NCBI GenBank assembly: GCA_016617855.1
Contig: JAECUM010004967.1
Location: forward strand, 92,407 to 156,406
Direction of reading: 5' to 3'
DNA from: Megalonaias nervosa
Lineage: Eukaryota > Mollusca > Bivalvia > Unionida > Unionidae
Length of the DNA: 64,000 nucleotides
Positions 27,606 to 43,917 of this stretch are shown one piece after another; the stretch's first letter is position 1; each line of letters starts with the position of its first letter. A model generated the notes under the pieces. It saw nothing but the letters and a program-made list of their open reading frames with translations. It searched no databases and was not told the origin of the DNA. Position numbers and translations under genes: made by a program.

Positions 27606-27850
27606 AAGCAGCAGGAAGGGTGAACAGACAACTTTTTGCCTGGACCGTTAAGTAAAAATAAATGAAAAAAAATAAGGTCAATAATGATAAACCGAACCTT
27701 CTAACAATATTATTACAGTATAGTTTGAAAAAACGGATAATAAATAATTTTAGTTAGCTCATTTTTGTTAATTTATTTTTGACTTTTGTTATATTGTGTT
27801 TATTTTACTCGCGGGTCACTCAATTTTTGTCATTCACCCTTCCTGCTGCT
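27606..27850. repeat. outer inverted-motif segment flanking the left end of the viral element
   Basis: AGCAGCAGGAAGGGTGAAC at 27,607 is inverted at 27,833-27,850 as TTCACCCTTCCTGCTGCT, enclosing about 210 AT-rich bases. The inner copy is the outer tip of the left terminal inverted repeat. The outer copy continues into CAGACAAC, like the sequence just outside the right terminus (AGACATTTGG). The same motif starts each tandem unit at 43,901-44,339. Confidence 0.7.
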
Positions 27851-28182
27851 ATGAATTTATCCAGATCAGATATTGCATGTATATACATGAAGTGAGTCAT
27901 ACATACATGTACTGAGATAGGTATGCGTACCGATTTTTCAAGGACATGTGTGGTAGTTCAAACAATAGTTGTGTTTATCGTCAGCGAAGATAGGTATTTG
28001 TGTGCAGTTTATTTCCGTGTTTTAATTTTAAATATAATACATTTTAATCGGTTCATACATATAATGGCAAAATATCTTAATAAAATTATAAATATTTATT
28101 TATTTGTAAATCAGATATCAAATGCTATTGCACAATAATTACATATAATAATTTCTAAAACGTATATTTGTAGTCGAGTTCG

Positions 28183-28239
28183 TTAGCTCAATGTTAAAGT
28201 TGTTGGAAACTTTAATACTGATGTTTGCGGTTCGACCCC
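28183..28239 (+). promoter_or_regulatory. tRNA-like A and B boxes inside the terminal repeat
   Basis: TTAGCTCAATGTTAAAG resembles an A box and GGTTCGACCCC a B box, with a small AAAGTT/AACTTT stem between them. The spacing is compatible with an RNA polymerase III internal promoter. The right repeat carries the same elements on the minus strand near 43,510-43,566. No acceptor stem pairs, so this is not a tRNA gene. The resemblance may be coincidental. Confidence 0.3.
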
Positions 28240-28302
28240 AGATCTCGCCGAGATGGGTTCGGGTCCCCGGGTCGCCCACGTCTTTTTAATAATTGGGGGG
28301 AG

Positions 28303-28406
28303 GCATCCCCTGAGATTTCGATAAATCACCACGTATCTCGTGGTCGGATTCCATTTTGGATTCTACCCCGGGGTTTCGTGGGGGTTTTATCGAAATCGCA
28401 ATGCCT
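28303..28406. repeat. long imperfect palindrome within the terminal repeat
   Basis: GCAT...GATTTCGATAAA...CCACG is inverted downstream as CGTGGGGGTTTTATCGAAATC...ATGC, giving a stem of roughly 25-30 bases with an inner CACG/CGTG hairpin. It is conserved in both terminal repeats (43,357-43,458 on the right). This suggests a role in replication, packaging or end-processing rather than chance. Confidence 0.75.
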
Positions 28407-28828
28407 AGACAGCCTTCTGAATTGCTAATATTTCACTTTCGTCGATTAGAAATTCGCCGTGAGGTGTGTCTATGCAATACCCCCCCCCCAAAATAATCAG
28501 TAGTATGCCTTGAGTTCTCTGCCCCATGGAAGAACCCCCAAATAAACATCCAGAAAGGGTGTTAGCCAAAAGAAACAGAACATGGGTGTGCCGCATAATA
28601 GTCATAAGAGAGAGAATGACAATGTAAGGACCCCATGAAAGTCACACAGGCTATCGAGGGGTTCCATTGAAGGGTAATCGCTGGGATCTACTGATTATTT
28701 TTGATAAATTAAAATACAGACAAACATGCATACATAGAAAGAGGAAATAATTCTCTAGCAGAGGAGGAGCAGAGTTATCGCGCTTTATTAAGTATTTTTG
28801 GTGATTTCAAATTCAATTAAATATCTAT

Positions 28829-28849
28829 TATAAATATTATTTAATAATG
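28829..28849 (+). promoter_or_regulatory. start-proximal AT-rich box of the first viral gene
   Basis: TATAAATATTAT followed by TTAATAATG places a TATAAATATTAT box directly at the start codon at 28,847. It is a variant of the identical 16-base box found at 31,794 and 41,754. Confidence 0.5.
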
Positions 28850-29851
28850 AATATTGGAGAACCACACTCAACTAGATTAGCACGAGAAAGACTAGAAGCA
28901 ATTAGAAAATATTTACCTGTTCGTGATGCTGTCAAGCAACAATTACAACAACGACAAGAATCTCATGTTGAATTTGAGGAGGATACAAAACAATTATTTA
29001 AACCTATTACTGAGACCACTAAAGGTATTCAACCTGTGTTAGAGAAAACCTCTGAAGAAACTGGAAAAATAGCAAAAAGAACAAAACAGACAAAAAAGAT
29101 TCTTAGAGAACTTCCAGCCGAAATATCTGCTGCGATGCCAGTCCCGGAAATATCTGAAGATGCAGACCAGGCAGAAGAAGGTGCTGAAGCACTATCTCCT
29201 GAACCAAAATCAACAGTTAAATTGATAGATAAATTTCATGAAGAAACTGTTAAGATAATTAATAGACTTAAACTACAAGAATTATCTGAATTTGCTTTTG
29301 ATAGTTTTAGTCAAAGAGGTAAATTAATGAAATCTGAATATGTTAAAGATATTAAAACCCGTGACCAGTGGCAAAAAACATTATATCGCATGCGCATGAA
29401 TGTTGAGCAAGCTAGAGCTGATGATCCATTATATCAGAAATATATTGAGGAAATTGATCATTTAATCCGATTAAAAAAAGAGGAGAAAAAACAAATTAAA
29501 AAACCTTCAAAACAAACAGCACCAAAATCACAAATACCAGTTCTATCTCCTACACCAAAGAAAACAACATCATCGAAACCAAGTGAAGAGGAAGAAGAAG
29601 AATTTCAAGACGCTCCCGGTGTAATTGGAAGTGGTTTAGGAAGTGGTCTTATTACTTGTCCCAATAATATCCTTGCTGATGTCGATCGATTAGAAATTCT
29701 CATCGGAGGAAAACGAGCTGGTAATAATTCCCCAGAAATTATTAATGAGGCGGCTGATATTTGCAGACGATTATTTACCGGTGGTATCATGGACGTTGAT
29801 GTTTATCAGTCTCTTATTAATGAAATTGCCGATGACTACTACAGCGACTGA
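28847..29851 (+). CDS. viral coiled-coil virion-associated protein (putative)
   Basis: First gene of the rightward block, 334 residues, starting at an ATG just downstream of a TATAAATATTAT box. The N-terminal two thirds is highly charged and helical (RARERLEAIRKYLP-like, EEDTKQLFKPITETTKGI). It is followed by an acidic run (SEEEEEEFQDAP near residue 250), a GSGLGSGL glycine linker, and a conserved-looking C-terminal helical segment (LEILIGGKRAGNNSPEIINEA). Proteins with this charged coil and the IRAGN-like C-terminal motif recur next to capsid genes in animal Polinton/adintovirus-like elements, by recall. A scaffold or internal virion role is inferred. The next gene overlaps its last 20 bases. 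Confidence 0.6.
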   Translation: MNIGEPHSTRLARERLEAIRKYLPVRDAVKQQLQQRQESHVEFEEDTKQLFKPITETTKGIQPVLEKTSEETGKIAKRTKQTKKILRELPAEISAAMPVPEISEDADQAEEGAEALSPEPKSTVKLIDKFHEETVKIINRLKLQELSEFAFDSFSQRGKLMKSEYVKDIKTRDQWQKTLYRMRMNVEQARADDPLYQKYIEEIDHLIRLKKEEKKQIKKPSKQTAPKSQIPVLSPTPKKTTSSKPSEEEEEEFQDAPGVIGSGLGSGLITCPNNILADVDRLEILIGGKRAGNNSPEIINEAADICRRLFTGGIMDVDVYQSLINEIADDYYSD

Positions 29852-30374
29852 GTATGTAATTAAATACAATTACTATAATAAAATGATCGTACATAGTACT
29901 CAACGTGGACCAACTATGGTCAGGGTGATAAATTCACGATTACCAGTATATAAAACGACATACGGAAATGGACTAGGTGATGTTGTTCAGGATCTATTTA
30001 GAAGGATAGCCCCAAAAGCAATACCGATTGCAAAGCAACTGGGAATGAAAGCTATTGATGTTGTTCGTGAAAAAGGTATTGGTGCTGTTGGTAATGTTGC
30101 TGGTAAAGCATTTTCAGCGATTAAAGATAGGTTAACACGATTAATACGCAGACCTGTGGTCCGACCTCAACCAGTAAAATTACCTAGTACAGAAGTAATG
30201 CCTGCAAATGTCAGTAAAATAATAAATCAAGTTGCTAATCAAAAACTAGCAGAGTTGGATGATGTGCCTTTATCAGAAAAAGAAAAAAATATAACCTCTA
30301 GTCTGATAGCAGGAAGTGGTCTCACTTCCCGAAGTGGTCTCACTTCCCGAAGTAATCTTCGTTTTAGACGATAA
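29832..30374 (+). CDS. viral basic core/minor virion protein, adenovirus pX/pVI-like (putative)
   Basis: I place the start at the ATG at 29,832, which overlaps the upstream stop by 20 bases; the frame is open further upstream but without a better start. The protein is 180 residues and strongly basic. It has an internal VYKTTYGNGLGDVVQDLFRR segment, an amphipathic or hydrophobic helix with AIPIAKQLGMKAIDVV, an RLTRLIRRPVVRP patch, and a C-terminal SGLTSR repeat made by an exact 18-base duplication. The YGNGLG-x-LF arrangement followed by basic helices is seen in core/minor proteins of midsize eukaryotic DNA viruses. A DNA-condensing or membrane-active virion role is inferred. Confidence 0.55.
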   Translation: MTTTATEYVIKYNYYNKMIVHSTQRGPTMVRVINSRLPVYKTTYGNGLGDVVQDLFRRIAPKAIPIAKQLGMKAIDVVREKGIGAVGNVAGKAFSAIKDRLTRLIRRPVVRPQPVKLPSTEVMPANVSKIINQVANQKLAELDDVPLSEKEKNITSSLIAGSGLTSRSGLTSRSNLRFRR

Positions 30375-30388
30375 TAAATATAATAAAG

Positions 30389-31783
30389 ATGTTCAAACGT
30401 ATATCTGATCCTGCATTTGACATGGACGCACCAGTAATTAAAGATGAGTCTGTGCGTGATTATCAGTATTATTCTTACGACGCACGAATTCCAGATCAGC
30501 GTGGACGAATCGAACTACAGGTTCAGGATACAAGTAGATATTTCTTACCCGCTGAAGCATTTATTGAAGTCGAAGGTGAAATTTTAAATATTGCTAATCC
30601 TTCAGCACCAGTAGCATATGGAGACGATGTTAATGTCGGTTTTGTTAATAATGGTATTATGGCATTATTTGACAGTGCAACGTACATGATTGACGGAAAA
30701 AATATTGAATCTATTCAGAAAGATGTTGATGTTGCAACAACAATACTTGGTCTTGCAAGATATAGTGATGATTATTCAAGATCAGCTGGTCCATCAATGA
30801 TGTTTGCAAAAGATACAACTGATTCTCCAGAGTATCGACAATATGAAATAGGACAACCAAGAAATTTTGCTAGAAACGCCAATGCGGATGTACAAAGTAT
30901 GATTATTAATGTAGATCCAGATTTCAACTTAGGATTTAGATCACGTCGAGAAATGTTGCGTGGTGGAAGAAGAGCATTTTCATGTGTGATTCCACTATCA
31001 CATATATTTGGATTTTGTAGAAATGTCAGAAAAGTCATTTTCGGAGCTAAGCATACAGTTGTACTTGTACGAAAAGCAACTGACAATGATGCAATATGGA
31101 GACTCGCTGGTGATGCTGGCAAAGTAATTCTTACAAAACTTTCATTGTGGATGCCGGTGATGACTCCATCAATAACTGAAGAAGATCGTCTACTCTCTTT
31201 TATGAATCAAGGTGGTAAATCAGCATTATCGTGGTTAACAATGACCACAGATGCTATCCAGAGTAATATTAATGGTTTTTTTACGTGGCAAATAGCATCA
31301 CAACAAGGTGTTTCTGCACCACGACATATATTTATTGCATTTCAAGATGCTGCACGGGTGGATGATCAAACACGTAGTATTATGACATTTGATAATCTTG
31401 GTGTTTCCGAAGTTTCCTTAAGAATAAATGGACATCAAGAACCATCCGAAGATATTTTACTGAATTTCGATGAAAATCATGTAGCACGTGTATATCACCG
31501 TCTAATGACGTTCATGGGACGTGATCAAAATGTTGATACTGGTTTACAAATATCACAATTGGATTTTACAACCTTATACCCAATTTATTATTTTTCGCTC
31601 GAACATTTAGATTTAACCAGACAATCTGTAGTCGATATACATTTTCGAGCTCATGTTAATAGAGATATTGGAATTATCCCTAATTACAGGGCAATTGCTG
31701 TCATACTCAGCGATAAATCGATGTTACTTGAAGGTGCTGGTGGACGAGTGAGAGTCGTTGATGCTCCAGTAGAAAACATGTAA
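30389..31783 (+). CDS. putative double-jelly-roll major capsid protein
   Basis: 464 residues, intact, starting 14 bases after the previous stop behind an AT-rich leader (AAATATAATAAAG). Beta-rich pattern throughout: an N-terminal strand set (GRIELQVQDTSRYFLPAEAF), a middle block (RAFSCVIPLSHIFGFCRNV followed by KVIFGAKHTVVLVRKATDND), and a C-terminal block (TLYPIYYFSLEHLDLTRQS, then VDIHFRAHVN). Length, position between core-like protein and protease, and the VIPL.HIFGF...KHTVVLVR signature fit the capsid protein of animal Polinton/adintovirus-like elements. I cannot model the fold here, so double jelly-roll is inferred from context and pattern. The frame has no damage. Confidence 0.68.
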   Translation: MFKRISDPAFDMDAPVIKDESVRDYQYYSYDARIPDQRGRIELQVQDTSRYFLPAEAFIEVEGEILNIANPSAPVAYGDDVNVGFVNNGIMALFDSATYMIDGKNIESIQKDVDVATTILGLARYSDDYSRSAGPSMMFAKDTTDSPEYRQYEIGQPRNFARNANADVQSMIINVDPDFNLGFRSRREMLRGGRRAFSCVIPLSHIFGFCRNVRKVIFGAKHTVVLVRKATDNDAIWRLAGDAGKVILTKLSLWMPVMTPSITEEDRLLSFMNQGGKSALSWLTMTTDAIQSNINGFFTWQIASQQGVSAPRHIFIAFQDAARVDDQTRSIMTFDNLGVSEVSLRINGHQEPSEDILLNFDENHVARVYHRLMTFMGRDQNVDTGLQISQLDFTTLYPIYYFSLEHLDLTRQSVVDIHFRAHVNRDIGIIPNYRAIAVILSDKSMLLEGAGGRVRVVDAPVENM

Positions 31784-31793
31784 TTAGATTATT

Positions 31794-31809
31794 TATAAAT
31801 ATTATAATG
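31794..31809 (+). promoter_or_regulatory. 16-bp viral start-proximal promoter box
   Basis: TATAAATATTATAATG ends in the ATG of the gene at 31,807. Exactly the same 16 bases occur on the minus strand at 41,754-41,769, ending in the ATG of the integrase gene. A close variant precedes the first gene at 28,847. Sharing between an early-type and a structural gene suggests a general viral promoter or initiation element. Confidence 0.65.
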
Positions 31810-32382
31810 TCGTATAATAATGTTAGTGTTAGTCTGACTCCTGGTCAGATTAAAAGGATACAATCAGCATCAAAAAATAATTGTGGATTAAAAATATTGC
31901 TAAAGAAAGATCAGATGAGCGGCTCAAATAAATTATCGCTTACAGAACGTCAGCTCGGGCATTTCAATGAAGCAAAAAAATCAAATAAAGGTATAAAACT
32001 TAATCTTTCTGCGGGTGCCATTAAAGATATTATTAAGACGGGTGGTATATTTCCACTTCTTGCTGCTATACCAGCATTAATTGCCGCTGCAGCCCCAGCT
32101 GTTGCAAAAGCAGCTGCATTAGGCGCCGTTGGAACCGCTGCTGGAATGGCATTAAAGAAAGCAACAGGAAAGGGAATCAAAAAAAAAAAGGGGAAGGGGT
32201 CTAAGATTACCAGGGACTCCACATTCATGGTACGGAAAAGGCCTAAGATTACCAGGGACAATTTACTAATATCTCCTATGTCCAATTTTGATTTACTAGA
32301 TGCTGCTAAAAAATTAAAAATAAAAAATTTTAGAGGTGTTTTTATGCGCGATCAATTACCAAAACAGCCAAAACAATATTGA
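31807..32382 (+). CDS. viral virion protein with glycine/alanine membrane-active segment; N-terminal part of the protease-bearing gene
   Basis: 191 residues, starting at the ATG of the shared 16-base box. The N-terminal domain (VSLTPGQIKRIQSA, KLSLTERQLGHFNEA, IKLNLSAGAIKDI) has repeated TPGQ/TERQ/SAGA-type helices. An alanine-rich hydrophobic stretch follows (FPLLAAIPALIAAAAPAVAK), then a Lys/Gly-rich patch and duplicated SKITRD/PKITRD boxes. The C-terminal NFDLLDAAKKL ... NFRGVFMRDQLP is the segment that in related viral proteases sits directly before the catalytic domain. Here the frame stops within 10 codons, while the catalytic domain is open in the +1 frame from 32,336. Either a recoding event or a one-base indel separates the two. 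Confidence 0.6.
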   Translation: MSYNNVSVSLTPGQIKRIQSASKNNCGLKILLKKDQMSGSNKLSLTERQLGHFNEAKKSNKGIKLNLSAGAIKDIIKTGGIFPLLAAIPALIAAAAPAVAKAAALGAVGTAAGMALKKATGKGIKKKKGKGSKITRDSTFMVRKRPKITRDNLLISPMSNFDLLDAAKKLKIKNFRGVFMRDQLPKQPKQY

Positions 32383-32692
32383 AACAGGTATTATTAATCT
32401 CGATGAAAATTCTGGTCCAGGCACGCATTGGGTCGGATATGCAATTGATCCACGTGGAATTATTTATTTTGATTCATATGGACTAGCTCCACCAAAAGAA
32501 TTCTTAAAGTATATTAGTTGCTATCAAAGTATTCCAATATGGTATTCAACATTACCTACACAAACATTAACCGATCCACCAATATGTGGTCGAGAAGTAC
32601 TTAATGTACTTGATGTTATATCAAAATCAACAAAACCCCCCCACAAAGTTGTACATGAATATACTACGACGTCATATTTAAACAGACATTAG
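32336..32692 (+). CDS. adenain-like maturation cysteine protease domain (frame-split)
   Basis: The catalytic domain is read in the +1 frame relative to the upstream gene. It contains GTHWVGY (catalytic His), IIYFDSYG (Asp) and DPPICGREVLNVL (catalytic Cys region), the arrangement of adenovirus-type proteases that cleave capsid precursors. The open frame has no ATG anywhere; the nominal start is a GTG inside the upstream gene. It therefore cannot be made by ordinary initiation and depends on a frame change near 32,360-32,382, or is broken in this copy. The domain is otherwise undamaged through its stop at 32,690. Length (about 105 catalytic residues after the junction) is short relative to the roughly 200 of adenain. 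Confidence 0.75.
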   Translation: MFLCAINYQNSQNNIETGIINLDENSGPGTHWVGYAIDPRGIIYFDSYGLAPPKEFLKYISCYQSIPIWYSTLPTQTLTDPPICGREVLNVLDVISKSTKPPHKVVHEYTTTSYLNRH

Positions 32693-32700
32693 TAAATATA

Positions 32701-33819
32701 ATGGTGGATATTTATGGAAGATCTTCCCGTAGAGGTCATCAGCAGGCTGATTTATCTAAGTATGCAACTCTTGATCAACTCAGAAATGAAATTGATGATT
32801 TATTAAATCTCGCAAGTGTGGATCAAAATGAAGTTGTTTTTCAGGATAAACAAGGACGATTAAAAACAAGTAATATACAACTACCAGATGTTCTTATAAG
32901 AATTCCAACTGCAGCCGCTGATAATATTGTTACCTTCTCTGCTCAAGGTAAAATACAAGATTCTGGTACATCACTCAGTAATTATATTAAGAAATCCGGC
33001 GATGTATTTACAGGCGCTATTATTATGAATCAGAATAAAATTACAGATCTTGGAAATCCAACCGCAGATGCAGACGCCGCAACAAAGAAATATGTCGACG
33101 ATCAAGAATCTAAGTACGTATTAACCAACCGCGGTATAATGCGTGCATTTCTCGACATGAATAACAACAGCATTACTAATCTCAGAAGACCAGAGACAGA
33201 TTTTGATGCAGTTAATAAAAAATACGTCGATGATAAGAAAGTTCCAATCAATAATGAAATAACAGCACTTAAAAATGAATTTTTTAGTCACGTGAATACG
33301 TTTTCAATTTTTAACAGAAACATAAACAAACTTAAAAATGATTTTTTTGGAAACCCATCAAAGGTTGATATAAAACTTGATGATATTAATAAAAAATTAA
33401 TTGATATAGAAGCAAAACTTTATACATTAAATAGAGAAAAATTTAGTTTAGAAAGTGATATTACTGAAATTAATAAAAAAATAAATCGATATATAATCCC
33501 CCACAGTTCGATTAAAAATATCGTATACACAGTAGCATCAGGACAATCAACATGGACACCACAAAATAATAATATCAAATATACCGCAGAAATTACTGGT
33601 ATTTACAGGCTGTCCGTATTTAGTGATGAAAGATTTGCTATAATTAACAGAAATATATTGCGTCATTCAACTGATTCTCTCTCTGGAGTTGTATCTATAT
33701 TGTTAAGAAAAGATGTTGAAGAAACATTTACACTGAGAATATATGATCAAAAAATAACCTCAGTGCCTTATTGGTGGCATATGGAATTTGTGGCTGAAAC
33801 ACCGCAATTAGTCACTTAA
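32701..33819 (+). CDS. viral trimeric fibre-like attachment protein (putative)
   Basis: 372 residues with an ATG in the leader TTAGTAAATATAATGG. Two imperfect fibre-shaft repeats are visible: residues about 100-137 (GDVFTGAIIMNQNKI ... DADAATKKYVDD) and about 148-178 (LDMNNNSITNL ... DFDAVNKKYVDD). The G-x-M-x-N-x-I-x-LG-P-x-D-x-DAA-KYVD pattern is well known from phage tail fibres and some eukaryotic virus fibres. A coiled coil follows (residues about 185-270, for example KLIDIEAKLYTLNREK), then a beta-rich C-terminal head (SGQSTWTPQNNNIKYTAEI). Attachment to the host cell surface is inferred from this shaft-plus-head layout. The frame is intact. Confidence 0.7.
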   Translation: MVDIYGRSSRRGHQQADLSKYATLDQLRNEIDDLLNLASVDQNEVVFQDKQGRLKTSNIQLPDVLIRIPTAAADNIVTFSAQGKIQDSGTSLSNYIKKSGDVFTGAIIMNQNKITDLGNPTADADAATKKYVDDQESKYVLTNRGIMRAFLDMNNNSITNLRRPETDFDAVNKKYVDDKKVPINNEITALKNEFFSHVNTFSIFNRNINKLKNDFFGNPSKVDIKLDDINKKLIDIEAKLYTLNREKFSLESDITEINKKINRYIIPHSSIKNIVYTVASGQSTWTPQNNNIKYTAEITGIYRLSVFSDERFAIINRNILRHSTDSLSGVVSILLRKDVEETFTLRIYDQKITSVPYWWHMEFVAETPQLVT

Positions 33820-33829
33820 TATAATAATA

Positions 33830-34366
33830 ATGGATCAACCTCAGTCTCGCATTGACGTTCAACTTTACAGATGCAATCAAGTATGTGAACGTCTGACTAA
33901 ACTAAATAATTTTATCGACTATTATAACACGAAAATAAAAAAATACAAAAGACGTATAGTTGTTATCGATGTAGTTGTTTACTCGGTTTCTGCTGTTATT
34001 ACTGGAACAGGATTATTATTATCAACATTGACGATGACAGCACCTACTATTATAACCATTATTGTTTCAGCATCAACGACTATTGCTGGTGTTCTAGGTA
34101 TTATAACCAAAAAGATACATACTTGTACAAATGCTAAATTGCACGATTATATGATTAAATTACACACAGTGGTAGAGGCATGTTCTAAATTATCTTTATA
34201 TATTTCTTCGTGTGTCAGTGATGGTGAAATATCTGATACTGAATTCGCGATGATGATGAAAACTTATGATGATGCTTTTAAAGTGATCGCAAATGATTTT
34301 AATGAATTAAATAACAACAATAATAATAATGACAGACAGGGAATTACTTCAGCAGATCGTCACTAA
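33830..34366 (+). CDS. small viral membrane protein with hydrophobic hairpin
   Basis: 178 residues; ATG preceded by TTAATATAATAATA. Residues about 45-95 form two adjacent transmembrane helices (IDVVVYSVSAVITGTGLLLS and TIITIIVSASTTIAGVLGII) separated by a short loop. Helical soluble regions lie on both sides, and an Asn run encoded by AAT/AAC repeats is near the C-terminus. Helix-hairpin membrane proteins of this size are common beside fibre and capsid genes in adintovirus/Polinton-like elements. An internal membrane or entry-related role is possible but unproven. The last 38 bases overlap the next gene. Confidence 0.55.
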   Translation: MDQPQSRIDVQLYRCNQVCERLTKLNNFIDYYNTKIKKYKRRIVVIDVVVYSVSAVITGTGLLLSTLTMTAPTIITIIVSASTTIAGVLGIITKKIHTCTNAKLHDYMIKLHTVVEACSKLSLYISSCVSDGEISDTEFAMMMKTYDDAFKVIANDFNELNNNNNNNDRQGITSADRH

Positions 34367-34946
34367 TACAACTCCGTCAAAAACTACGATGATATCGTTA
34401 AGTTCGACCAATCCTGAGTTTAGTGTCAATTTTCCAACCGCAATTCCTGCAAAAGAAATAGCATTAGCACAATTGCGAGTTTATTATAGTTGGCCCAATA
34501 TTAGATCAAAACCATTTGGTGGACTACAGCCAAATAATTCATTAATATTTGCTAATAAGAATAAACCTGATGGAACTCCTGATTGGCAAATAGTTTCTAT
34601 TCCAACGGGCAGTTATCAAATAGAGCAGATTAATGACGAGTTTCAACGCAGAATTAAATCTATTACAGGAAAAGAATCAAAAATAGCAATTACTGTCTAC
34701 GAACCAACACTATCTGCGGTTATTGAAATAAATTCCCCTGATTACTCCGTAGATATTTATCAAAGTTCGATTAGATCAGTATTAGGTTGGCCTGAATATC
34801 CACCGGTTTATCAAGTACCACCAGAACCACAGAGATCTGATTTTGTCATAGATGTTAAAAAATTTATAAAACCTCCAGAATATCGAACAGAAAAAATGCT
34901 TACCCATGGCGACGATATTTTGGTGATGGAGTTATACATTATATAG
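34329..34946 (+). CDS. putative minor capsid/penton-like protein, N-terminal part (frame-split)
   Basis: 205 residues with ATG at 34,329 inside the tail of the membrane-protein gene. It has beta-rich sequence with ALAQLRVYYSWPNI, a NNSLIFANKNK segment, and IPTGSYQIEQINDEFQRRI, a set recurring in a conserved structural protein of animal Polinton-like elements (by recall). The frame ends at 34,944-34,946, but the -1 frame is open from 34,859 through 35,836. It carries sequence that looks like the rest of the same protein. No good start codon serves that second part before 35,183. Confidence 0.5.
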   Translation: MTDRELLQQIVTNTTPSKTTMISLSSTNPEFSVNFPTAIPAKEIALAQLRVYYSWPNIRSKPFGGLQPNNSLIFANKNKPDGTPDWQIVSIPTGSYQIEQINDEFQRRIKSITGKESKIAITVYEPTLSAVIEINSPDYSVDIYQSSIRSVLGWPEYPPVYQVPPEPQRSDFVIDVKKFIKPPEYRTEKMLTHGDDILVMELYII

Positions 34947-35836
34947 ATAAAACAGAAACCCATTTTACAAAAATAGTTGATGGTAAAAAAGGTAAAATAA
35001 TAGTACTTGATGTTGATGAAATAAATTCATATGCTAATACAATTAAGTCTGAACACGGACGTATACTTGATTATCTAAGAAATTTATTTTCCAACATTAG
35101 CAATTCCTACAACGATGACTTAAAAAATCAAATAATTGAAGTAATACAACATTTGAATCAAGTTGCTTCAGACCTAGATTTCATGAATGATATTATTGTT
35201 AACAGAGAAAAAAAATTAGTGAACATAACAGCAGATAGACGATATAAAGATTTATTATATATAGTTAATGAAGACGGTCCACCTCGAGGTGTTAGAGCAA
35301 ATCTTCTGTTCACAACAGTATTTCTAAAACATTTCGGAATTACGCGAGAACAACTATCAACATTTATAATTCCTGGATTTAATTCTGAAGAGCTAAAGAA
35401 ATCAGTTAATGATCTTATTGATGAACAATTTAAAAGAATATGTGATTCATGGAAAAAATTAATACCTACACCAACCATTCTTAAATATAATAATGATCCA
35501 CACGGTGGTGGTCGACATATCTCACCTGGTATTGTTAATATAACAACAACAATTGCAGTCAATCTGGTATGTGACGTAATTGATGACAGTTATCAAGTAG
35601 ATCTTTCAAAATCTAATCACCGCAGTGGCACTGCGGAACAGGGGTATATACTATATTCATTTAGCCCTAAAGACCCGCCCGGTTGGTTAATTGTGTCTGA
35701 ACCAATTAACCCAATTTATTTACGAGTTCATAATCCATTTCTGACAAGAATAAATTTCAAACTCACTGACCAGGCAGGAAATATTTTGGATCTAAGACAA
35801 GAATCTCTTAATATTAATTTATATATACGCTCGTAG
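34859..35836 (+). CDS. C-terminal part of the split minor capsid/penton-like protein
   Basis: The open frame starts without an ATG; the first in-frame ATG is at 35,183, giving 217 residues if used alone. The region 34,922-35,180 reads as plausible protein (GDGVIHYIDKTETHF, then a helical stretch), implying that translation enters from the upstream frame by a -1 shift near 34,917-34,925 (GATATTTTGG). The C-terminus is a beta domain with HGGGRHISPGIVNI, then PGWLIVSEPINPIYLRV and ITFKLTDQAGN-like sequence ending in NINLYIRS. This is the kind of terminal strand set seen in virion proteins. Function as penton or spike base is inferred only. Confidence 0.45.
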   Translation, partial: KIYKTSRISNRKNAYPWRRYFGDGVIHYIDKTETHFTKIVDGKKGKIIVLDVDEINSYANTIKSEHGRILDYLRNLFSNISNSYNDDLKNQIIEVIQHLNQVASDLDFMNDIIVNREKKLVNITADRRYKDLLYIVNEDGPPRGVRANLLFTTVFLKHFGITREQLSTFIIPGFNSEELKKSVNDLIDEQFKRICDSWKKLIPTPTILKYNNDPHGGGRHISPGIVNITTTIAVNLVCDVIDDSYQVDLSKSNHRSGTAEQGYILYSFSPKDPPGWLIVSEPINPIYLRVHNPFLTRINFKLTDQAGNILDLRQESLNINLYIRS

Positions 35837-36448: not shown

Positions 36449-36949
36449 TTAGATATATTCAAATATTATCCACTGATTATATGTTTTCGAAAATGCTGAT
36501 CTAGTAATATTATTTGCAACAAATTGCACCGATCGTGTATGTATACTAAAATATTTTGCAGCCGCATACATCGATTTAAAAGTTATTTCTTGGCCTGTTT
36601 CTACATTTATGGATTTAATAGCTCTTCTTGCAAACTTTTTACATTTTCCAGTATTTCCGGATTTACAATTTTGACTCTGTGTAGTAATACGTAGATTTCC
36701 AAGTGAATTGTCAAGCTTATTGCCGTTGATGTGGTCAATCACATATCCATCTTTGATGACCCCAAAATAACATTCAAATATGAATTTATGCGAGTAATAA
36801 TGTTTATTTCCATTGGTATTAAAACTAAAATAACCAGTATTATTAATATTACCGACTGGTTTTTTCAATCTACAGTGTCTGATTACACCATCTCGGGATG
36901 CTTCATAATTTTTTATTATTGGATGTTTCACAAATTCGTTTTGCTCCAT
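36449..36949 (-). CDS. HNH homing endonuclease with NUMOD-type DNA-binding motifs
   Basis: 166 residues, ATG on the minus strand behind ATTATTATATAA. Domains in order: an N-terminal NUMOD4-like motif (IIKNYEASRDGVIRH); an HNH nuclease core (SHKFIFECYF, DGYVIDHINGNKLDNS and LGNLRITTQSQN, with the H-N-N triad); and a C-terminal NUMOD1-like helix-turn-helix (EITFKSMYAAAKYFSI). This is the architecture of free-standing phage and NCLDV homing endonucleases that cut a cognate site and spread by repair. It is not inside an intron here; it occupies an intergenic position, so it is probably a selfish insertion or co-opted nuclease. The frame is intact. Confidence 0.82.
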   Translation of the reverse strand: MEQNEFVKHPIIKNYEASRDGVIRHCRLKKPVGNINNTGYFSFNTNGNKHYYSHKFIFECYFGVIKDGYVIDHINGNKLDNSLGNLRITTQSQNCKSGNTGKCKKFARRAIKSINVETGQEITFKSMYAAAKYFSIHTRSVQFVANNITRSAFSKTYNQWIIFEYI

Positions 36950-36962
36950 TTATATAATAATA

Positions 36963-37268
36963 TTATTTGTCTAAATCATTATTTTGAAATCTAACTAGAT
37001 AATCTTCTTCTGTCTTTATAGGAGAGTCAGTATTATTTTTTTTGTCATAATATCGTTTTAATTCCCTGTATTTTTTTCCTCCACATTTTAGACACAATTG
37101 AGTTTTTCCTCTGACTCCAACACCACATTGAATACACGGTATTGGTCCTGTACTTCCATTTTTGATACTTTGTGCATGATATCCGCAGTATTTGTTCACG
37201 CACGGTTTATTACAAAGAGAAATATATCCAATTCTGAGCCAAACACATTTGTTCTTTGTTTCAAACAT
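36963..37268 (-). CDS. viral zinc-ribbon protein, function unknown
   Basis: 101 residues starting at ATG behind TATATATA. It carries a Cys/His cluster (CNKPCVNKYCGYH) and a zinc-ribbon pair (CIQCG ... LCLKCGGKKYRE) and ends in a charged tail. Two metal sites are likely. The layout suggests a nucleic-acid-binding regulator. It starts 44 bases from the divergent replicase gene, so the two may share a promoter region. Confidence 0.6.
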   Translation of the reverse strand: MFETKNKCVWLRIGYISLCNKPCVNKYCGYHAQSIKNGSTGPIPCIQCGVGVRGKTQLCLKCGGKKYRELKRYYDKKNNTDSPIKTEEDYLVRFQNNDLDK

Positions 37269-37312: not shown

Positions 37313-38002
37313 ATGGAGGAATTATCGGCAATTGAACCTTCCCATGCTAGATTTGATCTTGACAGATTATCAGAATATAAATTTAGTACTTTGATGCAAG
37401 ATCTGGCATTAACAGATGAGGATATAATCGAACGTATTCGTGAAGCAAAAAATGAATTTCGTGACGATGGTGCTGCTCATGTATGGTCAACATTCAGAGT
37501 CGGAAATGTTACTAATATGATGAATGACGAACGAGGAAAAATAATTATTAATCACCTTGATGATCAAAAATATTTTATTTTAATAAAATTTATTGTAAAT
37601 ACAAAAGAAGATATTTGGATTATTCGTGACAAACGCGATCCAGTACACATACAATCAGGAAATAATACTGTTCTCTTAAATAATAAATCTAAACCCGGAA
37701 TACTAACAGGTGTTGACAAATTATATTATATACAGAGTTATCCAGCAACTGCAGTTGTATATGGAATATTTCCGTTGAATAATAAACCCGACGTCGGGGA
37801 TCTAAAACCTATGAAATTGTCAGAATCAAGAATAAACTGTGTAGCTGAACGAGTTACAGAACATTTTACAAATGCGATACGTGGTAATGGTTTAACAGAT
37901 TTACGACGTAAAAAAATAAATACTTGGGCAGAATCAGTTAAAGATACCGGAGCATCTATTAAAGATGTCGCTGAACTAGAAAAGAAATTAAATTCCCAAT
38001 AA
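37313..38002 (+). CDS. viral replicase, N-terminal part (frame-split)
   Basis: 229 residues from an ATG at 37,313. Mixed alpha/beta with RLSEYKFSTLMQDL, AHVWSTFRVGNVTNMMNDE and KYFILIKFIV, ending in a helix (IKDVAELEKKL). It has no motif I can assign. The frame stops at 38,000-38,002, while the -1 frame becomes open at 37,975 and continues without an ATG into the polymerase-helicase part. The two look like one gene interrupted in an A-rich overlap of about 25 bases. As a separate protein it could be a replication accessory factor. Confidence 0.5.
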   Translation: MEELSAIEPSHARFDLDRLSEYKFSTLMQDLALTDEDIIERIREAKNEFRDDGAAHVWSTFRVGNVTNMMNDERGKIIINHLDDQKYFILIKFIVNTKEDIWIIRDKRDPVHIQSGNNTVLLNNKSKPGILTGVDKLYYIQSYPATAVVYGIFPLNNKPDVGDLKPMKLSESRINCVAERVTEHFTNAIRGNGLTDLRRKKINTWAESVKDTGASIKDVAELEKKLNSQ

Positions 38003-40851
38003 CAGTAAAAACGCTGACGGGAGAGATTTTATATAAACCAAAATACACAAAAAATGGAGCTCCAATAGATATTATTGATCATAATTCGCACGCATGGACC
38101 TCAGCAGTAACAATATTTCCACGAGATAGAAAAGTTAAATTTTATGATGGTCATATATTTGATTTTATCAAAAATATCAGTAAAAGTGACCCTGTGTCTG
38201 TTTGGTTATTTCAGAGTTCGGAATATGATCATTACGATCAGTTTGTACGGCCTAATGGTGATATTTACCGTACAGAATCTCTTAATGTAGAAATGGAAAA
38301 TCTTGCGCTGAAATATACTTCAGACGATGTCAAAATTAGACAATTATTAAATAATTGTTTTACAGTTCCATCCGTAGCAGCTCATTTCGCTCAGGAGAAA
38401 AATTTATGGAAACCAACACGATATGAATTTCTTGAAGATATCCATAAAAGTTGCGTAGAATACGGACACGGAGGATTATGGAATACTAAATACAACTATA
38501 GTGACATTATATCCGTCGATATGGTGGCATGTTATCCTGGAAGTTTTCTTGGATACGGAGAATGTTCTAAATACTTTAAGAGATTCGGACATCCATCACA
38601 CGAAATGACCAGGGTTGCAATAAACGGACATTTACCAGATTTTGATTTAACAGGATTTGCTCATGTAGAATCATTCGAATTTGCAGAAAATCTCCATCCG
38701 ATTACTTATATTTGGTTTGGAAGACATTTTTCAGAGCGATGTTGGGTTCCAATAGTACTATTGCGATATATGCTTGATGTTGGAATTTTAATATCTTTAC
38801 AGGTGAGTGAGGCGATTATATCATATAGTCCACAGAAACAAATTTGGTTACCAGAACCAAATAGATTTAATACTGATGATGCCAGGAAAGAATTTCCTGA
38901 TCTTAATGAAGATGATATTATTAAAATTACTAATAATATACGTAAATGCAGAGACGAGCATGATGAAAAACTTGCAAAAGATCTTGGTAGAAAGATAATT
39001 GGTAAATTTACTCAAGGAGGAGCCTATGATCATAAAAGATACTGTACAAGATTAATTATGGACGATGCTGAACTCGATTTTATAATTGCTGATACAACAG
39101 AAAAAAATATATTTATAAATCGGAGTAATGCTTATTTGTCAGACGGAACCAAACTAGGTACAATTGTGAGTTATCTTGATGGTGACTCACCACAATTTAC
39201 TCATTTAAGATCATCTATGTTGGCATATGTTTCTATAAATCTACTGTCTATGATAAATAGATTTTCTCGTGATGCTGTCAGAGTCGCCACGGATTCGTTT
39301 TATATAAATAAAAAATATACGGATTTATTAAAACCACTACTTGGTAATGGTGAATGGGGATCATGGAGAATAAAACAAGAAAATATACTTAGTTATTCTG
39401 AATCTGCCGACGTTGAAATTAAGGAAATATATCACAAAAATAATAATCAAATATCAAAATCATCAGCACCATCTGTATATGATCCTATATCTAGACATAA
39501 AACTGTTTATCTTAATGGATGCGGTGGTTCAGGTAAAACAACTCGTGTGATTAAATTATTCATGAATAATAATTCAGATATAATTGTTTTGACACCGACA
39601 CATAAACTTGCCAGAGAAATAAAAGAACGAGGAGTAAAATCGTGTACTTATCATAGTTTCTTTAGATGGTGTGGAGACACATGGACTCCTGAGAGAATGG
39701 GTGAAAAATATATACCTAAATATATTATATGGGACGAGATATGCACGGTGCCGTTAGAAATATTAAAAACATTTCTTGAATGGTTATTGACGAAAAATAC
39801 TGCTGTGATAATGTGCGGTGATCATGGTCAACCACCACCCTTTATTGGACAGTCTCCACATGAATGGTTGAAGAATAATGTAGATTATTATGAAGAAATA
39901 AATGATGACCATAGAGCTATTGATGAACCACTGAAGGAATTTAAAAGACTAATCAGACTACAACCAGACAGAGTACAATGTGAAATAATGCGAGGAGTAA
40001 TTCCAGAGACTTCTATGAGTGATTTTCTAAATTTATGGAATCCTGCTGATTTAATAGTTGCAAGTAGAAAGATAGTTCGTGATGAACTACAGAATAAATT
40101 ATTTCTGTTACATAAAGAAAAGTTTTCAGATCTACCTGTACCATTGTGTTATCGCCCAGCAGATACTCGACGACAGAATATTGATGTTGAAATTCCTGGT
40201 GGAGATACTGAAAGTGTCCGAGTACAGAATCTTGTCTTGAATGATATTGTTTTAGTCGATATTAATGTCGTTGAGAATGCGCTGAATATGAATAAATCAC
40301 CGTGGACATTAGGATATGCTATAACAATCCATTCTTCACAGGGGTTAACTATTTCTGATACAAATATTTGGATTATAGATGATCGGATCGAATGGTCGAA
40401 TTTAGTTTATCTCGCAGTTTCTAGAGTCAGAAGAATATCTCAACTACATAGGGTTATTATTAATTTTACAGAAAATAATGATCAGACTGTTAATAATGAC
40501 GTAATAAGAAAAAAACTATCTGGTTATAAGCAGTGTGACAAAAAAAATAAACGTGATTTTGATATTAATGTTGAATTTATTATAAAACTAAAACAACTAC
40601 AGAATAATAATTGCGCAAGTTGCAATTGTAATATGTTGTGGCAATATTCGAATAATAATCCAAGACAATTTACCGTAGACAGAATTAATAATGATCTTGG
40701 TCATACACGTGATAATGTGATGCTGACCTGTCTCGAGTGTAATCGACGTCGGGGCGCTGCACGCCCTGGTTCTGGTTATGTAATTGTATGTGGTGGTAAT
40801 TGTGTGTCTTCAGGGATTACCTGTAATTGTTCACGTACAAATCCACGTTGA
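37975..40851 (+). CDS. viral replicase: short family B polymerase + SF1 helicase + HNH motif
   Basis: Open from 37,975 to a stop at 40,849. The first GTG (38,194) is internal to plausible protein and the first ATG is at 38,293, so entry from the upstream frame is likely. Residues numbered from 38,194: motif A VDMVACYPG (D109), motif B RKIIGKFTQGG (266-276) and motif C ATDSFYIN (365-372) are reminiscent of family B polymerases. Motif C has Ala for the first Asp but keeps the second (D367), the residue known to bind metal. Then a superfamily 1 helicase: Walker A GCGGSGKTT (442), Walker B IIWDEI (D514), GDHGQPPP (542), IHSSQG (about 712) and LAVSRVRR (about 740). The C-terminus has an HNH-like zinc module (CxC ... 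DRINND ... CLECNRRRG). The last 76 bases overlap the opposing integrase gene. Confidence 0.75.
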   Translation, partial: TRKEIKFPITVKTLTGEILYKPKYTKNGAPIDIIDHNSHAWTSAVTIFPRDRKVKFYDGHIFDFIKNISKSDPVSVWLFQSSEYDHYDQFVRPNGDIYRTESLNVEMENLALKYTSDDVKIRQLLNNCFTVPSVAAHFAQEKNLWKPTRYEFLEDIHKSCVEYGHGGLWNTKYNYSDIISVDMVACYPGSFLGYGECSKYFKRFGHPSHEMTRVAINGHLPDFDLTGFAHVESFEFAENLHPITYIWFGRHFSERCWVPIVLLRYMLDVGILISLQVSEAIISYSPQKQIWLPEPNRFNTDDARKEFPDLNEDDIIKITNNIRKCRDEHDEKLAKDLGRKIIGKFTQGGAYDHKRYCTRLIMDDAELDFIIADTTEKNIFINRSNAYLSDGTKLGTIVSYLDGDSPQFTHLRSSMLAYVSINLLSMINRFSRDAVRVATDSFYINKKYTDLLKPLLGNGEWGSWRIKQENILSYSESADVEIKEIYHKNNNQISKSSAPSVYDPISRHKTVYLNGCGGSGKTTRVIKLFMNNNSDIIVLTPTHKLAREIKERGVKSCTYHSFFRWCGDTWTPERMGEKYIPKYIIWDEICTVPLEILKTFLEWLLTKNTAVIMCGDHGQPPPFIGQSPHEWLKNNVDYYEEINDDHRAIDEPLKEFKRLIRLQPDRVQCEIMRGVIPETSMSDFLNLWNPADLIVASRKIVRDELQNKLFLLHKEKFSDLPVPLCYRPADTRRQNIDVEIPGGDTESVRVQNLVLNDIVLVDINVVENALNMNKSPWTLGYAITIHSSQGLTISDTNIWIIDDRIEWSNLVYLAVSRVRRISQLHRVIINFTENNDQTVNNDVIRKKLSGYKQCDKKNKRDFDINVEFIIKLKQLQNNNCASCNCNMLWQYSNNNPRQFTVDRINNDLGHTRDNVMLTCLECNRRRGAARPGSGYVIVCGGNCVSSGITCNCSRTNPR

Positions 40852-41756
40852 GGGGCTGTAGAATCTAATCTGTAAATTGGAGGTCTACCAGTGGATCTAA
40901 CCACACTAGAAATTGTATGTGTAGTCACGCTCCAGATAGGATCGGTTGTTCTTTTTTTACCACCTTCAAGTTCACCAGGTTCGTATAAATATCTTACAAT
41001 TACATTACCTAATACTGGTTGAGGTTGATGTCTGTCATTACTACGGGGTATATATTTTTTTGTAATCGCATTAGAAGGTTTCATGGAAGTTGAACGAGTA
41101 ATTTCATTATTTAATGCAGATATCACACTTGGTAACCTCGCAACCCATTCACGAGATCTCTCACCGGATTTAAAGTCAGTAGATATTTCTTTTGCATATT
41201 GGTATCCAAATAACCGCTCGGCAAGTGTTCGATTAAATCGTTCAACAATTGCCTGATCTCGATGAATTTCAGTATGTCCTCGTCTGATTTTAACATTATG
41301 TTTCTTCATCAACAATAATACTGTACCAAGAAATTCTTTGCCCGGATCAACCTGTAATAATTGTGGCCATCGCAAAGGTCCTCGATGATAAATTCGTTCG
41401 AACGCAGATGCAACTTCGGATGCTGTCTTTGTTGATAATGGTTCAGCATCTTTATATTTACTTGCAACATCAACGACAGTTAATGCGTATTTGTATGTGC
41501 GTGATTTTCGTCCACGTGTTTTAACAGTATCATGTGGTAAAAACAAAATATCTGCTTGATGAACCTCATTAGGGACACTGACATCAAAATGTGAATATTG
41601 AATATTTTTAGGTGGTGGTAGATAAATTTGCCATATTGCCTGTCGTGCTAACCACGCTGCAGCAACAGAACGTGAGACTTTTGCTGCTTCAGATAATTTA
41701 GTAATCGCTGATTTGCCTCTCCAATATCCTCTTGGGCTATAATAAATGGATTCCAT
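40776..41756 (-). CDS. DDE integrase (retroviral/Polinton type)
   Basis: 326 residues from ATG at 41,756, which ends the shared 16-base box. The catalytic core has D69 (HQADILFL), D137 (LLQVDPGKEF) and E172 (QAIVERFNRTLAE), giving the D,D35E spacing of retroviral and Polinton integrases. The N-terminal domain is a helical segment rather than a clear HHCC finger. The C-terminus has an SH3/chromo-like element (VRYLYEPGELEGGKKR, DPIWSVTTHTI) typical of Polinton integrases. It catalyses strand transfer of the element ends into host DNA. All three acidic residues are present and the frame is intact, so the enzyme may be functional. It is convergent with the replicase. Confidence 0.9.
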   Translation of the reverse strand: MESIYYSPRGYWRGKSAITKLSEAAKVSRSVAAAWLARQAIWQIYLPPPKNIQYSHFDVSVPNEVHQADILFLPHDTVKTRGRKSRTYKYALTVVDVASKYKDAEPLSTKTASEVASAFERIYHRGPLRWPQLLQVDPGKEFLGTVLLLMKKHNVKIRRGHTEIHRDQAIVERFNRTLAERLFGYQYAKEISTDFKSGERSREWVARLPSVISALNNEITRSTSMKPSNAITKKYIPRSNDRHQPQPVLGNVIVRYLYEPGELEGGKKRTTDPIWSVTTHTISSVVRSTGRPPIYRLDSTAPQRGFVREQLQVIPEDTQLPPHTIT

Positions 41757-41769
41757 TATAATATTTATA
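41754..41769 (-). promoter_or_regulatory. 16-bp viral start-proximal promoter box (integrase)
   Basis: The minus-strand sequence TATAAATATTATAATG ends in the integrase start codon and is identical over 16 bases to 31,794-31,809. Confidence 0.65.
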
Positions 41770-41797
41770 TAATTAATTACCAGCCCCTAACATTATT

Positions 41798-42289
41798 TTA
41801 CTTTTCATGGCAGATTTTACTAGAAAAACTAACTAATTTATCTCTGACAGATTTATTTGGTATAGAATTTAATGCATGAATCCATTTTACATCTGCGAGA
41901 TGCCTTTGTTGTAAATCTTTACTTTTATACGCAACATCATGAACATGACACACTTGATCAATCTTATTTACTGGATGCTCTCCTGGTCTTGGCTGATCTT
42001 GATTATCAAGTCGAATGTCAAGTCGGGTTCCAGGACCACAATAATTATACCCTGGTAAGTGTTTTTCCCCCGGATATTTAGCCCACGGAGTTCCAGGTAA
42101 TTTTCCTAATAAAGCGGCTATATCTCCACCTGTCTTTGTCCCTGAATCAGACATGGAGATAAATTTATATTTTTTCGTGCCGCATTTTACACATTTACCT
42201 GTTAATGCACGTCGTTTATTTTTTGTTATTATTGTTGTCAGTCCAGTAGTGGGTGTAGATAATCTACATCGAACACAATATAGACTCAT
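41798..42289 (-). CDS. zinc-ribbon / phospholipase A2-domain virion protein
   Basis: 163 residues; I chose the ATG at 42,289, because the longer frame to 42,355 runs into the divergent ATPase gene. N-terminus: a small zinc ribbon (YCVRCR, C5/C8, and CVKCG, C33/C36) like the DUF5679 domain of large DNA viruses. Middle: YNYCGPGTRLD, a calcium-loop motif, followed by HPVNKIDQVCHVHDVAYKSK with the catalytic His-Asp pair (H117/D118). This is the parvovirus VP1-type phospholipase A2 signature. In parvoviruses that domain breaches the endosomal membrane, and related domains occur in adintovirus-like elements. Role in entry is inferred. The frame is intact. Confidence 0.82.
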   Translation of the reverse strand: MSLYCVRCRLSTPTTGLTTIITKNKRRALTGKCVKCGTKKYKFISMSDSGTKTGGDIAALLGKLPGTPWAKYPGEKHLPGYNYCGPGTRLDIRLDNQDQPRPGEHPVNKIDQVCHVHDVAYKSKDLQQRHLADVKWIHALNSIPNKSVRDKLVSFSSKICHEK

Positions 42290-42301
42290 GTTATTAATAA
42301 T
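42290..42301. promoter_or_regulatory. 12-bp divergent start region (PLA2 gene / ATPase gene)
   Basis: Only GTTATTAATAAT separates two divergent ATG codons. It is nearly palindromic (ATTATTAATAAT), so a single box could serve both genes. Confidence 0.45.
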
Positions 42302-42970
42302 ATGGATATAATTGATTTTTCGGCGACACGAAAACAGGAACCAGTAAAGCACCATTCAGCATTACCAAATTCGATAAGAATGATTATAATAGGTCCGTCT
42401 GGATCAGGTAAAACACAACTATTATTAAATTTAATAATGCGGTGGTTAAAATGGAGTAAATTGTATTTAGTAGCACCATCCGTAGATGATCAACACTGTT
42501 ACAAAATACTTAAAGATTTTAATGAAAATGCAAAATTGCTGAATGAAGACGGTGATGATGTTGTTGACTTTATCACAGATATTGATGAAGCCCCATCTGT
42601 AGATGACCTAAATGGATTTATTAATAATTTAGTGGTGTACGATGATATTATGTTGGACAGACAAACAAATCCAGCTAGAATATTTTCTCGAGGTAGACAC
42701 AAGAATACAGATGTTATATACGTCACACAAAGATATACACAAATACCCAAAGTGATCAGAGACAACTGCAATATTTTGGTTGTGTTTAATGGAGTAGATA
42801 ATTATACTTTACAGAATATTTATTATACTTGGTGTTCAGGGGATATGGATATGATGAAATTCAGAAACTTTTTTGCTCAAGCACAAGCTGTTACGTTTGG
42901 ATTTATTACAATAAATCTACATGATCCAAGATCCAGATATCGTATAGGTCTAGATAAAATCTTTGGTTAA
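42302..42970 (+). CDS. A32-type genome-packaging ATPase
   Basis: 222 residues from ATG at 42,302. Walker A is IIIGPSGSGKTQ (residues about 28-39) and Walker B is NLVVYDDIML (about 109-118); a downstream VIYVTQRYTQIPKVIRDNCN contains the sensor-like Gln/Arg region of the FtsK/HerA-A32 family. The family drives viral DNA into preformed capsids and is a hallmark of Polinton, adintovirus and NCLDV genomes. Length is normal for the family (about 200-260). The stop lies eight bases before the right terminal repeat, so this is the last gene of the element. The frame is intact. Confidence 0.9.
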   Translation: MDIIDFSATRKQEPVKHHSALPNSIRMIIIGPSGSGKTQLLLNLIMRWLKWSKLYLVAPSVDDQHCYKILKDFNENAKLLNEDGDDVVDFITDIDEAPSVDDLNGFINNLVVYDDIMLDRQTNPARIFSRGRHKNTDVIYVTQRYTQIPKVIRDNCNILVVFNGVDNYTLQNIYYTWCSGDMDMMKFRNFFAQAQAVTFGFITINLHDPRSRYRIGLDKIFG

Positions 42971-42978
42971 TCTGTGAT

Positions 42979-43917
42979 TAACTCTGCTCCTCCTCTGCTA
43001 GAGAATTATTTCCCCTTCTATGTATGTCTGTATGTATGCATGTTTGTCTGTATTTTAACTTATCAAAAATAATCAGTAGATCCCAGCGATTACCCTTCAA
43101 TGGAACCCCTCGATAGCCTGTGTGACTTTCATGGGGTCCTTACATTGTCATTCTCTCTCTCTTATGACTATTATGCGGCACACCCATGTTCTGTTTCTTT
43201 TGGCTAACACCCTTTCTGGATGTTTATTTGGGGGTTCTTCCATGGGGCAGAGAGCTCAAGGCATGCTACTGATTATTTTAGGGGGTAAATTTGCATAGAC
43301 ACACCTCCCGGCGAATTTCTAATCGACGAAAGCGAAATATTAGCATTTCAGAAGGTTGTCTAGGCATTGCGATTTCGATAAACCCCCACGAAACCCCGGG
43401 GTAGAATTCCAAAATAGAATCCGACCACGAGATACGTGGTGGTTTATCGAAATCTCAGGGGATGCCTCCCCCCCCCCCCTACTTATTAAAAGATATGGGC
43501 GACCCGGGGCGAACCGCAAACATCAGTGTTAAAGTTTCCAGCAACTTTAACATTGAGCTAACGAACTCGACTACGGATATATGTTTTAGAAATTATTATA
43601 TGTGATTATTGTGCAATAGCATTTGATATCTGATTTTACAAATAAATAAATATTTATAATTTTATTAAGATATTTTGCCATTATATGTATGAACCGATTA
43701 AAATGTATTATATTTAAAATTAAAACACGGAAATAAACTGCACACAAATACACGGACTATCGATAAACACAACTATTGTTTGAACTACTACGTCACACGT
43801 CCTTGAAAAATCGGTACGCATACCTATCTCAGTACATATATTATGTATGACTCACTTCACACTGTATATACATGCAATAGTTGATCTGGATAAATTCATA
43901 GCAGCAGGGAGGGTGAA
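42979..43917 (-). repeat. right terminal inverted repeat of the viral element (about 939 bp)
   Basis: Inverted copy of 27,833-28,777, from CTGCTCCTCCTCTGCTAGAG at its inner end to GCAGCAGGGAGGGTGAA at the tip. It shares the long palindrome (43,357-43,458) and the tRNA-like boxes. Differences include a longer C run at 43,470 and small indels, consistent with independent mutation after insertion. Confidence 0.92.

What the first reader, a model, noticed from the sequence alone, without database searches (positions are those of the whole stretch)
27833..43917. Complete 16-kb endogenous adintovirus/Polinton-like virus with long inverted repeats
Integrase with D,D35E, A32 ATPase, adenain-like protease, capsid candidate, fibre and PLA2 protein lie between 0.94-kb inverted repeats, and most frames are intact. 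The combination identifies an integrated animal virus whose replicase differs from classical Polintons. This is the strongest candidate for an undescribed system in the window.
Basis: partly seen in the sequence, partly recalled or inferred. Interest (0 to 1): 0.9.

Follow-up and report, generated by a model that had tools for sequence, protein, structure and literature searches.

The report
Integrated DNA virus with fused replicase
A 16.8-kb DNA virus built into an animal genome (probably a bivalve mollusc) belongs with the polinton-like viruses; it carries an unusual polymerase-helicase replicase and has many closely similar sister copies, so it looks like a virus lineage that was active not long ago.

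The parts
27607..27849 (.). left terminal module, 243 bp, bounded by inverted tips AGCAGCAGGAAGGGTGAA...TTCACCCTTCCTGCTGCT
   Evidence: 40 places scored in the genome at 89-100%
27850..28777 (.). left core terminal inverted repeat (long type)
28847..29851 (+). 334-aa ORF, no family above cut-off
29745..30374 (+). 209-aa ORF, no family
30389..31783 (+). [quoted passage not shown]
   Evidence: PF21738 E 2e-19; AlphaFold2 pLDDT 87.9; DJR matches
31807..32382 (+). hydrophobic basic 191-aa ORF, pVI/pX-like by look only; its end may belong to the protease
   Evidence: inference
32336..32692 (+). adenain-like protease piece
   Evidence: PF00770 E 0.005, below cut-off
32701..33819 (+). fibre, phage tail-fibre-like repeats
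   Evidence: phrog_2710 E 4.7e-14 and others
33830..34366 (+). 178-aa ORF with hydrophobic stretches, faint SLATT similarity
   Evidence: PF18181 E 0.034, below cut-off
34329..34946 (+). 205-aa ORF, penton (minor capsid) candidate by position only
   Evidence: no family or PDB sequence hit
35153..35836 (+). 227-aa ORF, unknown
35996..36409 (+). 137-aa ORF, unknown
36449..36949 (-). free-standing HNH endonuclease
   Evidence: PF13392 E 1.2e-12; phrog_59 E 2.5e-22
36963..37268 (-). 101-aa cysteine-rich ORF
37313..38002 (+). replicase, N-terminal piece with the putative vOTU Cys box (37838)
   Evidence: tblastn with relatives
37975..40851 (+). replicase, main piece (listed ORF starts at GTG 38194): His box 38080, palm motifs A/B/C, SF1 helicase, HNH
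40776..41756 (-). rve integrase, D69, D137, E172
   Evidence: PF00665 E 2.9e-7, 31.1 bits against cut-off 32.6; 3868 relatives, whose listed members carry PF00665
41798..42355 (-). PLA2-like domain (YNYCGPGT, HDVAY) with N-terminal DUF5679
   Evidence: PF08398 E 1.7e-11, PF18930 E 6.4e-11
42302..42970 (+). A32-type packaging ATPase
   Evidence: PF04665 E 4.3e-13
42979..43899 (.). right core terminal inverted repeat
43900..44360 (.). right terminal module: tip, 148-bp unit x3, outer tip CCTGCTGCT

Best explanation
An integrated polinton-like virus (PLV) of an animal, probably a bivalve mollusc, from a family that inserted many times and not long ago. Shown by computation: DJR capsid fold, packaging-ATPase family, rve integrase with D,D,E, palm PolB fused to an SF1 helicase, long inverted termini, 5-bp target duplications in 5 of 16 copies, selection against amino-acid change in the capsid. 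Inferred: a linear genome copied by protein priming from its ends by a replicase of the order TP - vOTU protease - palm - SF1 helicase - HNH; packaged by the A32-type ATPase into a DJR capsid matured by the adenain-like protease; entry with the fibre, membrane passage helped by the PLA2 and possibly by the hydrophobic proteins; insertion by the integrase with a 5-bp stagger at the AGCAGC tips. The copy in the window is itself damaged and probably a chimera of two insertions, most likely made by the assembler.
Against: No virion, transcript or extracellular genome was looked at or seen; two scans of viral contigs, with the replicase and the capsid alignments, found no relative. The genome tool scores only the best candidates, so the share of intact copies is biased upward. 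The protease match is below Pfam's cut-off; penton, terminal protein and vOTU were not shown by fold. 11 of 16 copies, the window among them, lack a target duplication. The host species was not identified; bivalve rests on relatives and one host gene.
Confidence: 0.82

Rival explanations
1. A true adintovirus (family Eupolintoviridae, formerly Adintoviridae).
For: Animal genome, rve integrase, hexon, adenain-like protease piece; the hexon finds the Trichoplax MELD virus hexon at 35% identity, E 1.6e-65; putative vOTU boxes before the palm.
Against: The replicase is a palm fused to an SF1 helicase and HNH; about 146 residues between the His box and motif A leave no room for an exonuclease domain (domain size recalled); no chromodomain model at E up to 1; the target duplication is 5 bp, not the 6 bp of vertebrate Mavericks.
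Confidence: 0.07
2. A self-synthesising transposon that spreads inside the genome without virions; capsid genes are passengers.
For: Many copies in one genome; integrase and target duplications; no relative found in the viral-contig collection.
Against: Capsid open in 83 of 91 scored copies and dN/dS 0.20 between eight copies spread down the ranking, which asks for selection on the capsid during spread. Both samples lean towards open copies.
Confidence: 0.1
3. Exogenous virus or a parasite's genome that contaminated the assembly.
For: MAGs of bacteria recalled as clam symbionts carry relatives, a sign that such sequences travel in assemblies.
Against: Copies sit in different flanks, five with their own target duplications; an element-free paralogue of the left flank lies on the same contig; a host-type HEPN_DZIP3 gene lies 1.7 kb from the left edge.
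Confidence: 0.03
4. About the window copy only: it is one genuine insertion whose unlike ends arose by biological recombination (ectopic exchange or flipping between inverted repeats) and not by assembly.
For: Other copies also combine unlike ends (C5406, C7558, C53925).
Against: The left flank is present twice, 99.95% over 4000 bp, once beside a left and once beside a right element end, as expected of mis-joined contigs; the repeats differ by 6-8% here, but by 0-3.1% in five of six copies with like ends (the sixth, C2090, has one block at 2.4% and one at 6.6%).
Confidence: 0.2

Closest known systems
Tlr1 element (Tetrahymena) and PLVs with pPolB-S1H ('Tlr1-like helicase') replicases
   Same: Palm of the protein-primed PolB with the first motif-C Asp replaced, C-terminal SF1 helicase and homing-type endonuclease (PMC11071308 passages and section 10; PMC12721341 abstract and passages); rve integrase, ATPase and capsid genes in Tlr1 (PMC4642659 passages).
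   Different: Animal host; HNH instead of Tlr1's GIY-YIG; PLA2-DUF5679 protein; modular termini.
Trichoplax MELD virus
   Same: Hexon 35% identical over 96%.
   Different: Its replicase was not at hand and was not compared.
Unnamed proteins of Sinanodonta, Potamilus, Elysia and glomeromycete fungi
   Same: Replicase: Sinanodonta 50%, Elysia 37-38%, fungi 29-47% over varying parts; capsid: Sinanodonta 56% over 61%, Potamilus 70% over 44%. The window's replicase groups with P0001-P0004 and Sinanodonta at 100% SH-aLRT.
   Different: Fungal replicases form a separate clade; the elements around these proteins were not examined.
Vertebrate Mavericks / adintoviruses (Eupolintoviridae)
   Same: rve integrase, DJR capsid, ATPase; trinucleotide-repeat end motif, (AGT)2//(ACT)2 there, (AGC)2//(GCT)2 here (PMC8097293 passages).
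   Different: Replicase class; 5-bp instead of 6-bp target duplications.

Membership tests
PLV with Tlr1-like replicase (pPolB-S1H) | DJR major capsid protein | tested here: met
PLV with Tlr1-like replicase (pPolB-S1H) | FtsK/A32-type packaging ATPase | tested here: met
   PF04665 E 4.3e-13
PLV with Tlr1-like replicase (pPolB-S1H) | Protein-primed PolB palm followed by SF1 helicase in one protein, no exonuclease | tested here: met
   absence of the exonuclease rests on lack of room
PLV with Tlr1-like replicase (pPolB-S1H) | Motif C with the first Asp changed, motifs A and B kept | tested here: met
   DMVACYP, GKFTQGG, ATDSFY
PLV with Tlr1-like replicase (pPolB-S1H) | vOTU with catalytic Cys and His before the palm | tested here: inconclusive
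   Conserved NCV and HNxHAW boxes, in different frames of this copy; not modelled, the assignment is mine
PLV with Tlr1-like replicase (pPolB-S1H) | Single jelly-roll minor capsid (penton) | not tested
   candidate 34329-34946 by position; no family or PDB sequence hit; no model made
PLV with Tlr1-like replicase (pPolB-S1H) | Ulp1/adenain-like protease | tested here: inconclusive
   PF00770 E 0.005, 17.0 bits against cut-off 21.3
Adintovirus (Eupolintoviridae) | Distinctive PolB with N-terminal OTU-like domain (definition read), of Polinton type with exonuclease | tested here: not met
   palm-only and fused to SF1 helicase and HNH; the OTU part alone may be present
Adintovirus (Eupolintoviridae) | Hexon reciprocally recognisable by BLASTp | tested here: inconclusive
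   No hit named adintovirus among 64, most hits unnamed; reference hexons not at hand
Adintovirus (Eupolintoviridae) | rve integrase with C-terminal chromodomain | tested here: inconclusive
   rve present, no chromodomain model at E up to 1; a divergent one is not excluded
Maverick/Polinton (vertebrate type) | 6-bp target site duplication | tested here: not met
   5 bp in 5 of 16 copies; 6 bp in 0 of 15
Non-viral transposon without capsid genes | no capsid gene | tested here: not met

The most novel reading that the evidence does not exclude
A family-level lineage of animal viruses, separate from the Eupolintoviridae, that replicates with a Tlr1-type protein-primed polymerase-helicase, is still infectious in bivalves, and builds its genome ends from exchangeable terminal modules bounded by inverted AGCAGC tips.
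Probability: 0.35. Interest if true: 0.7.

Novelty: new variant of a known kind. Interest (0 to 1): 0.55.

Why it matters
Tlr1-type replicases are described from protist PLVs and transpovirons in the papers I could read; here one belongs to a large family of closely similar copies in an animal genome, with the capsid gene under selection. If copies are as young as their open frames suggest, virions, host defence and integration of a PLV could be studied in a living animal, and the exchangeable terminal modules give a way to follow how protein-primed linear genomes change their ends.

Tried and rejected
Two viral-contig scans (replicase alignment, capsid alignment) gave 28 and 10 pattern matches and no relative; genome contigs gave one archaeal MAG contig (L009). 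PDB sequence search gave nothing for the capsid or the penton candidate. The first dN/dS estimate (0.02 among seven best-ranked copies) was set aside as biased by ranking; eight copies spread over the ranking were used instead. Those eight were chosen among copies without a listed stop, which biases the ratio downward somewhat; two of them lack two codons. The hypothesis that the flanking 148-bp array is a host satellite was dropped, since it sits between inner and outer tips as a terminal module and recurs at both ends of another copy. The idea that C2090_L/C311_R is the missing partner of the left flank (shared TCCCA) was not supported: those two share only 70 bases and the element-free paralogue continues otherwise; the paralogue, of which about 0.9 kb beyond the break was read, does not continue into the window's right flank either. 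Of 29 copies put into the end analysis (window plus 28), 13 gave no readable pair of tips; C10952 was dropped beforehand because its contig ends, and C3376 was dropped because one tip is cut short. The replicase tree holds the window and 77 of 89 relatives; P0060, P0062 and P0080-P0089 were left out.

Full report
What is there. Six-frame reading of 27-45 kb shows a compact set of long ORFs between inverted repeats of about 0.94 kb, 92% identical in two gapped blocks. Family searches give a double jelly-roll capsid (PF21738, 2e-19), an rve integrase (2.9e-7, just under Pfam's cut-off), an A32-type ATPase (4.3e-13), a PLA2-like domain with DUF5679 (1.7e-11 and 6.4e-11), an SF1 helicase (AAA_19, 2.4e-11), a free HNH endonuclease (1.2e-12), a weak adenain match (0.005, under the cut-off) and phage tail-fibre-like repeats (phrog_2710, 4.7e-14).

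Where the element ends. At the outer tips 5 of 16 copies with both tips readable, window included, have exact 5-bp direct repeats (TAGGC, GGGAT, GATGA, CGGTG, TTTCT). With one truncated-tip copy left out (5 of 15), shuffled pairings give 0.07 on average and shifted offsets give none. A paralogue of the left flank (87% and 85% in two parts), 103 kb upstream on the same contig and without an element, parts from the window exactly at 27606, while the window goes on with AGCAGCAGG. The element as assembled is thus 27607-44360, 16,754 bp. Published PLVs have 5-6 bp target duplications, and vertebrate Mavericks 6 bp with (AGT)2//(ACT)2 ends (PMC12220804 and PMC8097293, passages). Two core-repeat lengths occur, about 0.93 kb and about 45 bp.

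The window copy. It has unlike end modules and no target duplication (TTCCCA left, CACCGC right), and its repeats differ by 6-8%; of six copies with like ends five differ by 0-3.1% and one, C2090, has blocks at 2.4% and 6.6%. Its left flank recurs at 99.95% over 4 kb on contig C5406, where it adjoins the right end of an element, and the element-free paralogue does not continue into the window's right flank. Mis-joining of near-identical copies by the assembler explains all this; biological recombination is the alternative. Its replicase frame is broken. The protease region is spread over two or more frames in all eight copies looked at, in six patterns; broken frames, sequencing error and overlapping genes are not told apart.

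The family in the genome. The genome is 2.19 Gb in 54,709 contigs. Only the best candidates are scored, so counts are lower bounds and the share of open frames is biased upward: 91 capsids, 83 without stop; 123 integrases, 109 without stop; 51 replicases, 43 without stop in the matched part and 24 of them with an open frame of 1184-1189 codons; 40 left-type terminal modules. On 17 contigs listed for both capsid and integrase, 16 have the expected order and strand, 11 of them at 10.38-10.75 kb; C3207 does not fit. Eight capsid genes taken at steps down the ranking, copies with listed stops passed over, differ by 0.7-4.2%, with mean dN 0.0146, mean dS 0.074, ratio 0.20. That points to spread through working capsids; the same argument was made for cyprinid Mavericks, where the ratio is far lower (PMC8097293, passages). 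Gene linkage seems to hold in relatives: seven replicase hits share the exact length of their contig with an integrase hit and one (37,906 bases) with a capsid hit (judged by length only, and only the best 120 of 3868 integrase hits are listed).

Host. A DZIP3-type HEPN gene lies at 24325-25917 (PF18738, 2.1e-29); named relatives of capsid and replicase include unionid mussels, and integrase relatives appear in MAGs of Thiodiazotropha, which I recall as clam symbionts. Other named replicase relatives are from the sea slug Elysia and from fungi. A bivalve is likely; the species was not determined.

Known or new. PLVs, their DJR capsids, phage-like fibres and SLATT proteins (PMC12220804, section 13 part 1 read) and pPolB-S1H replicases are known. 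Searches listed no report of this replicase class in animal genomes; I saw listings and passages of these papers, and Starrett 2021 and Krupovic 2016 could not be read, so this is weak evidence of absence. I file it as a new variant of a known kind.

Noticed in passing
window 52820-53718 and 57225-58195, nested in 47912-48354 and 62828-63196: Two pairs of minisatellite arrays whose units read as reverse complements of each other, nested symmetrically: perhaps another large element with array-type inverted ends.
   Followed up: no
window 19456-22861: 3.4-kb satellite array, 49-bp unit, about 71 copies.
   Followed up: no
window 24325-25917 (-): HEPN_DZIP3 protein, 531 aa, single open frame, 1.7 kb from the virus edge.
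   Followed up: partly
window 14239-15702 (-): ORFs with a CCHC-like knuckle, perhaps remains of a retroelement gag; no Pfam hit for the two pieces tested.
   Followed up: partly
window 27392-27606: The last 215 bases before the virus edge belong to a dispersed repeat, over 30 places at 76-82%; none of the other fetched copy ends carries it except the duplicate on C5406 and the paralogue.
   Followed up: partly
G000:C4158:15902-17192: Paralogue of the element's left flank on the same contig, about 103 kb upstream, with about 277 bp between its two matched parts that the flank lacks.
   Followed up: partly
L009: Contig binned as a Diapherotrites archaeon MAG carries a 44% relative of the replicase; perhaps mis-binned viral or eukaryotic DNA.
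   Followed up: no
window 27607-27849 and 43900-44360: Terminal modules differ in kind between copies and ends though bounded by the same inverted tips; how modules are exchanged or gained is unexplained.
   Followed up: partly
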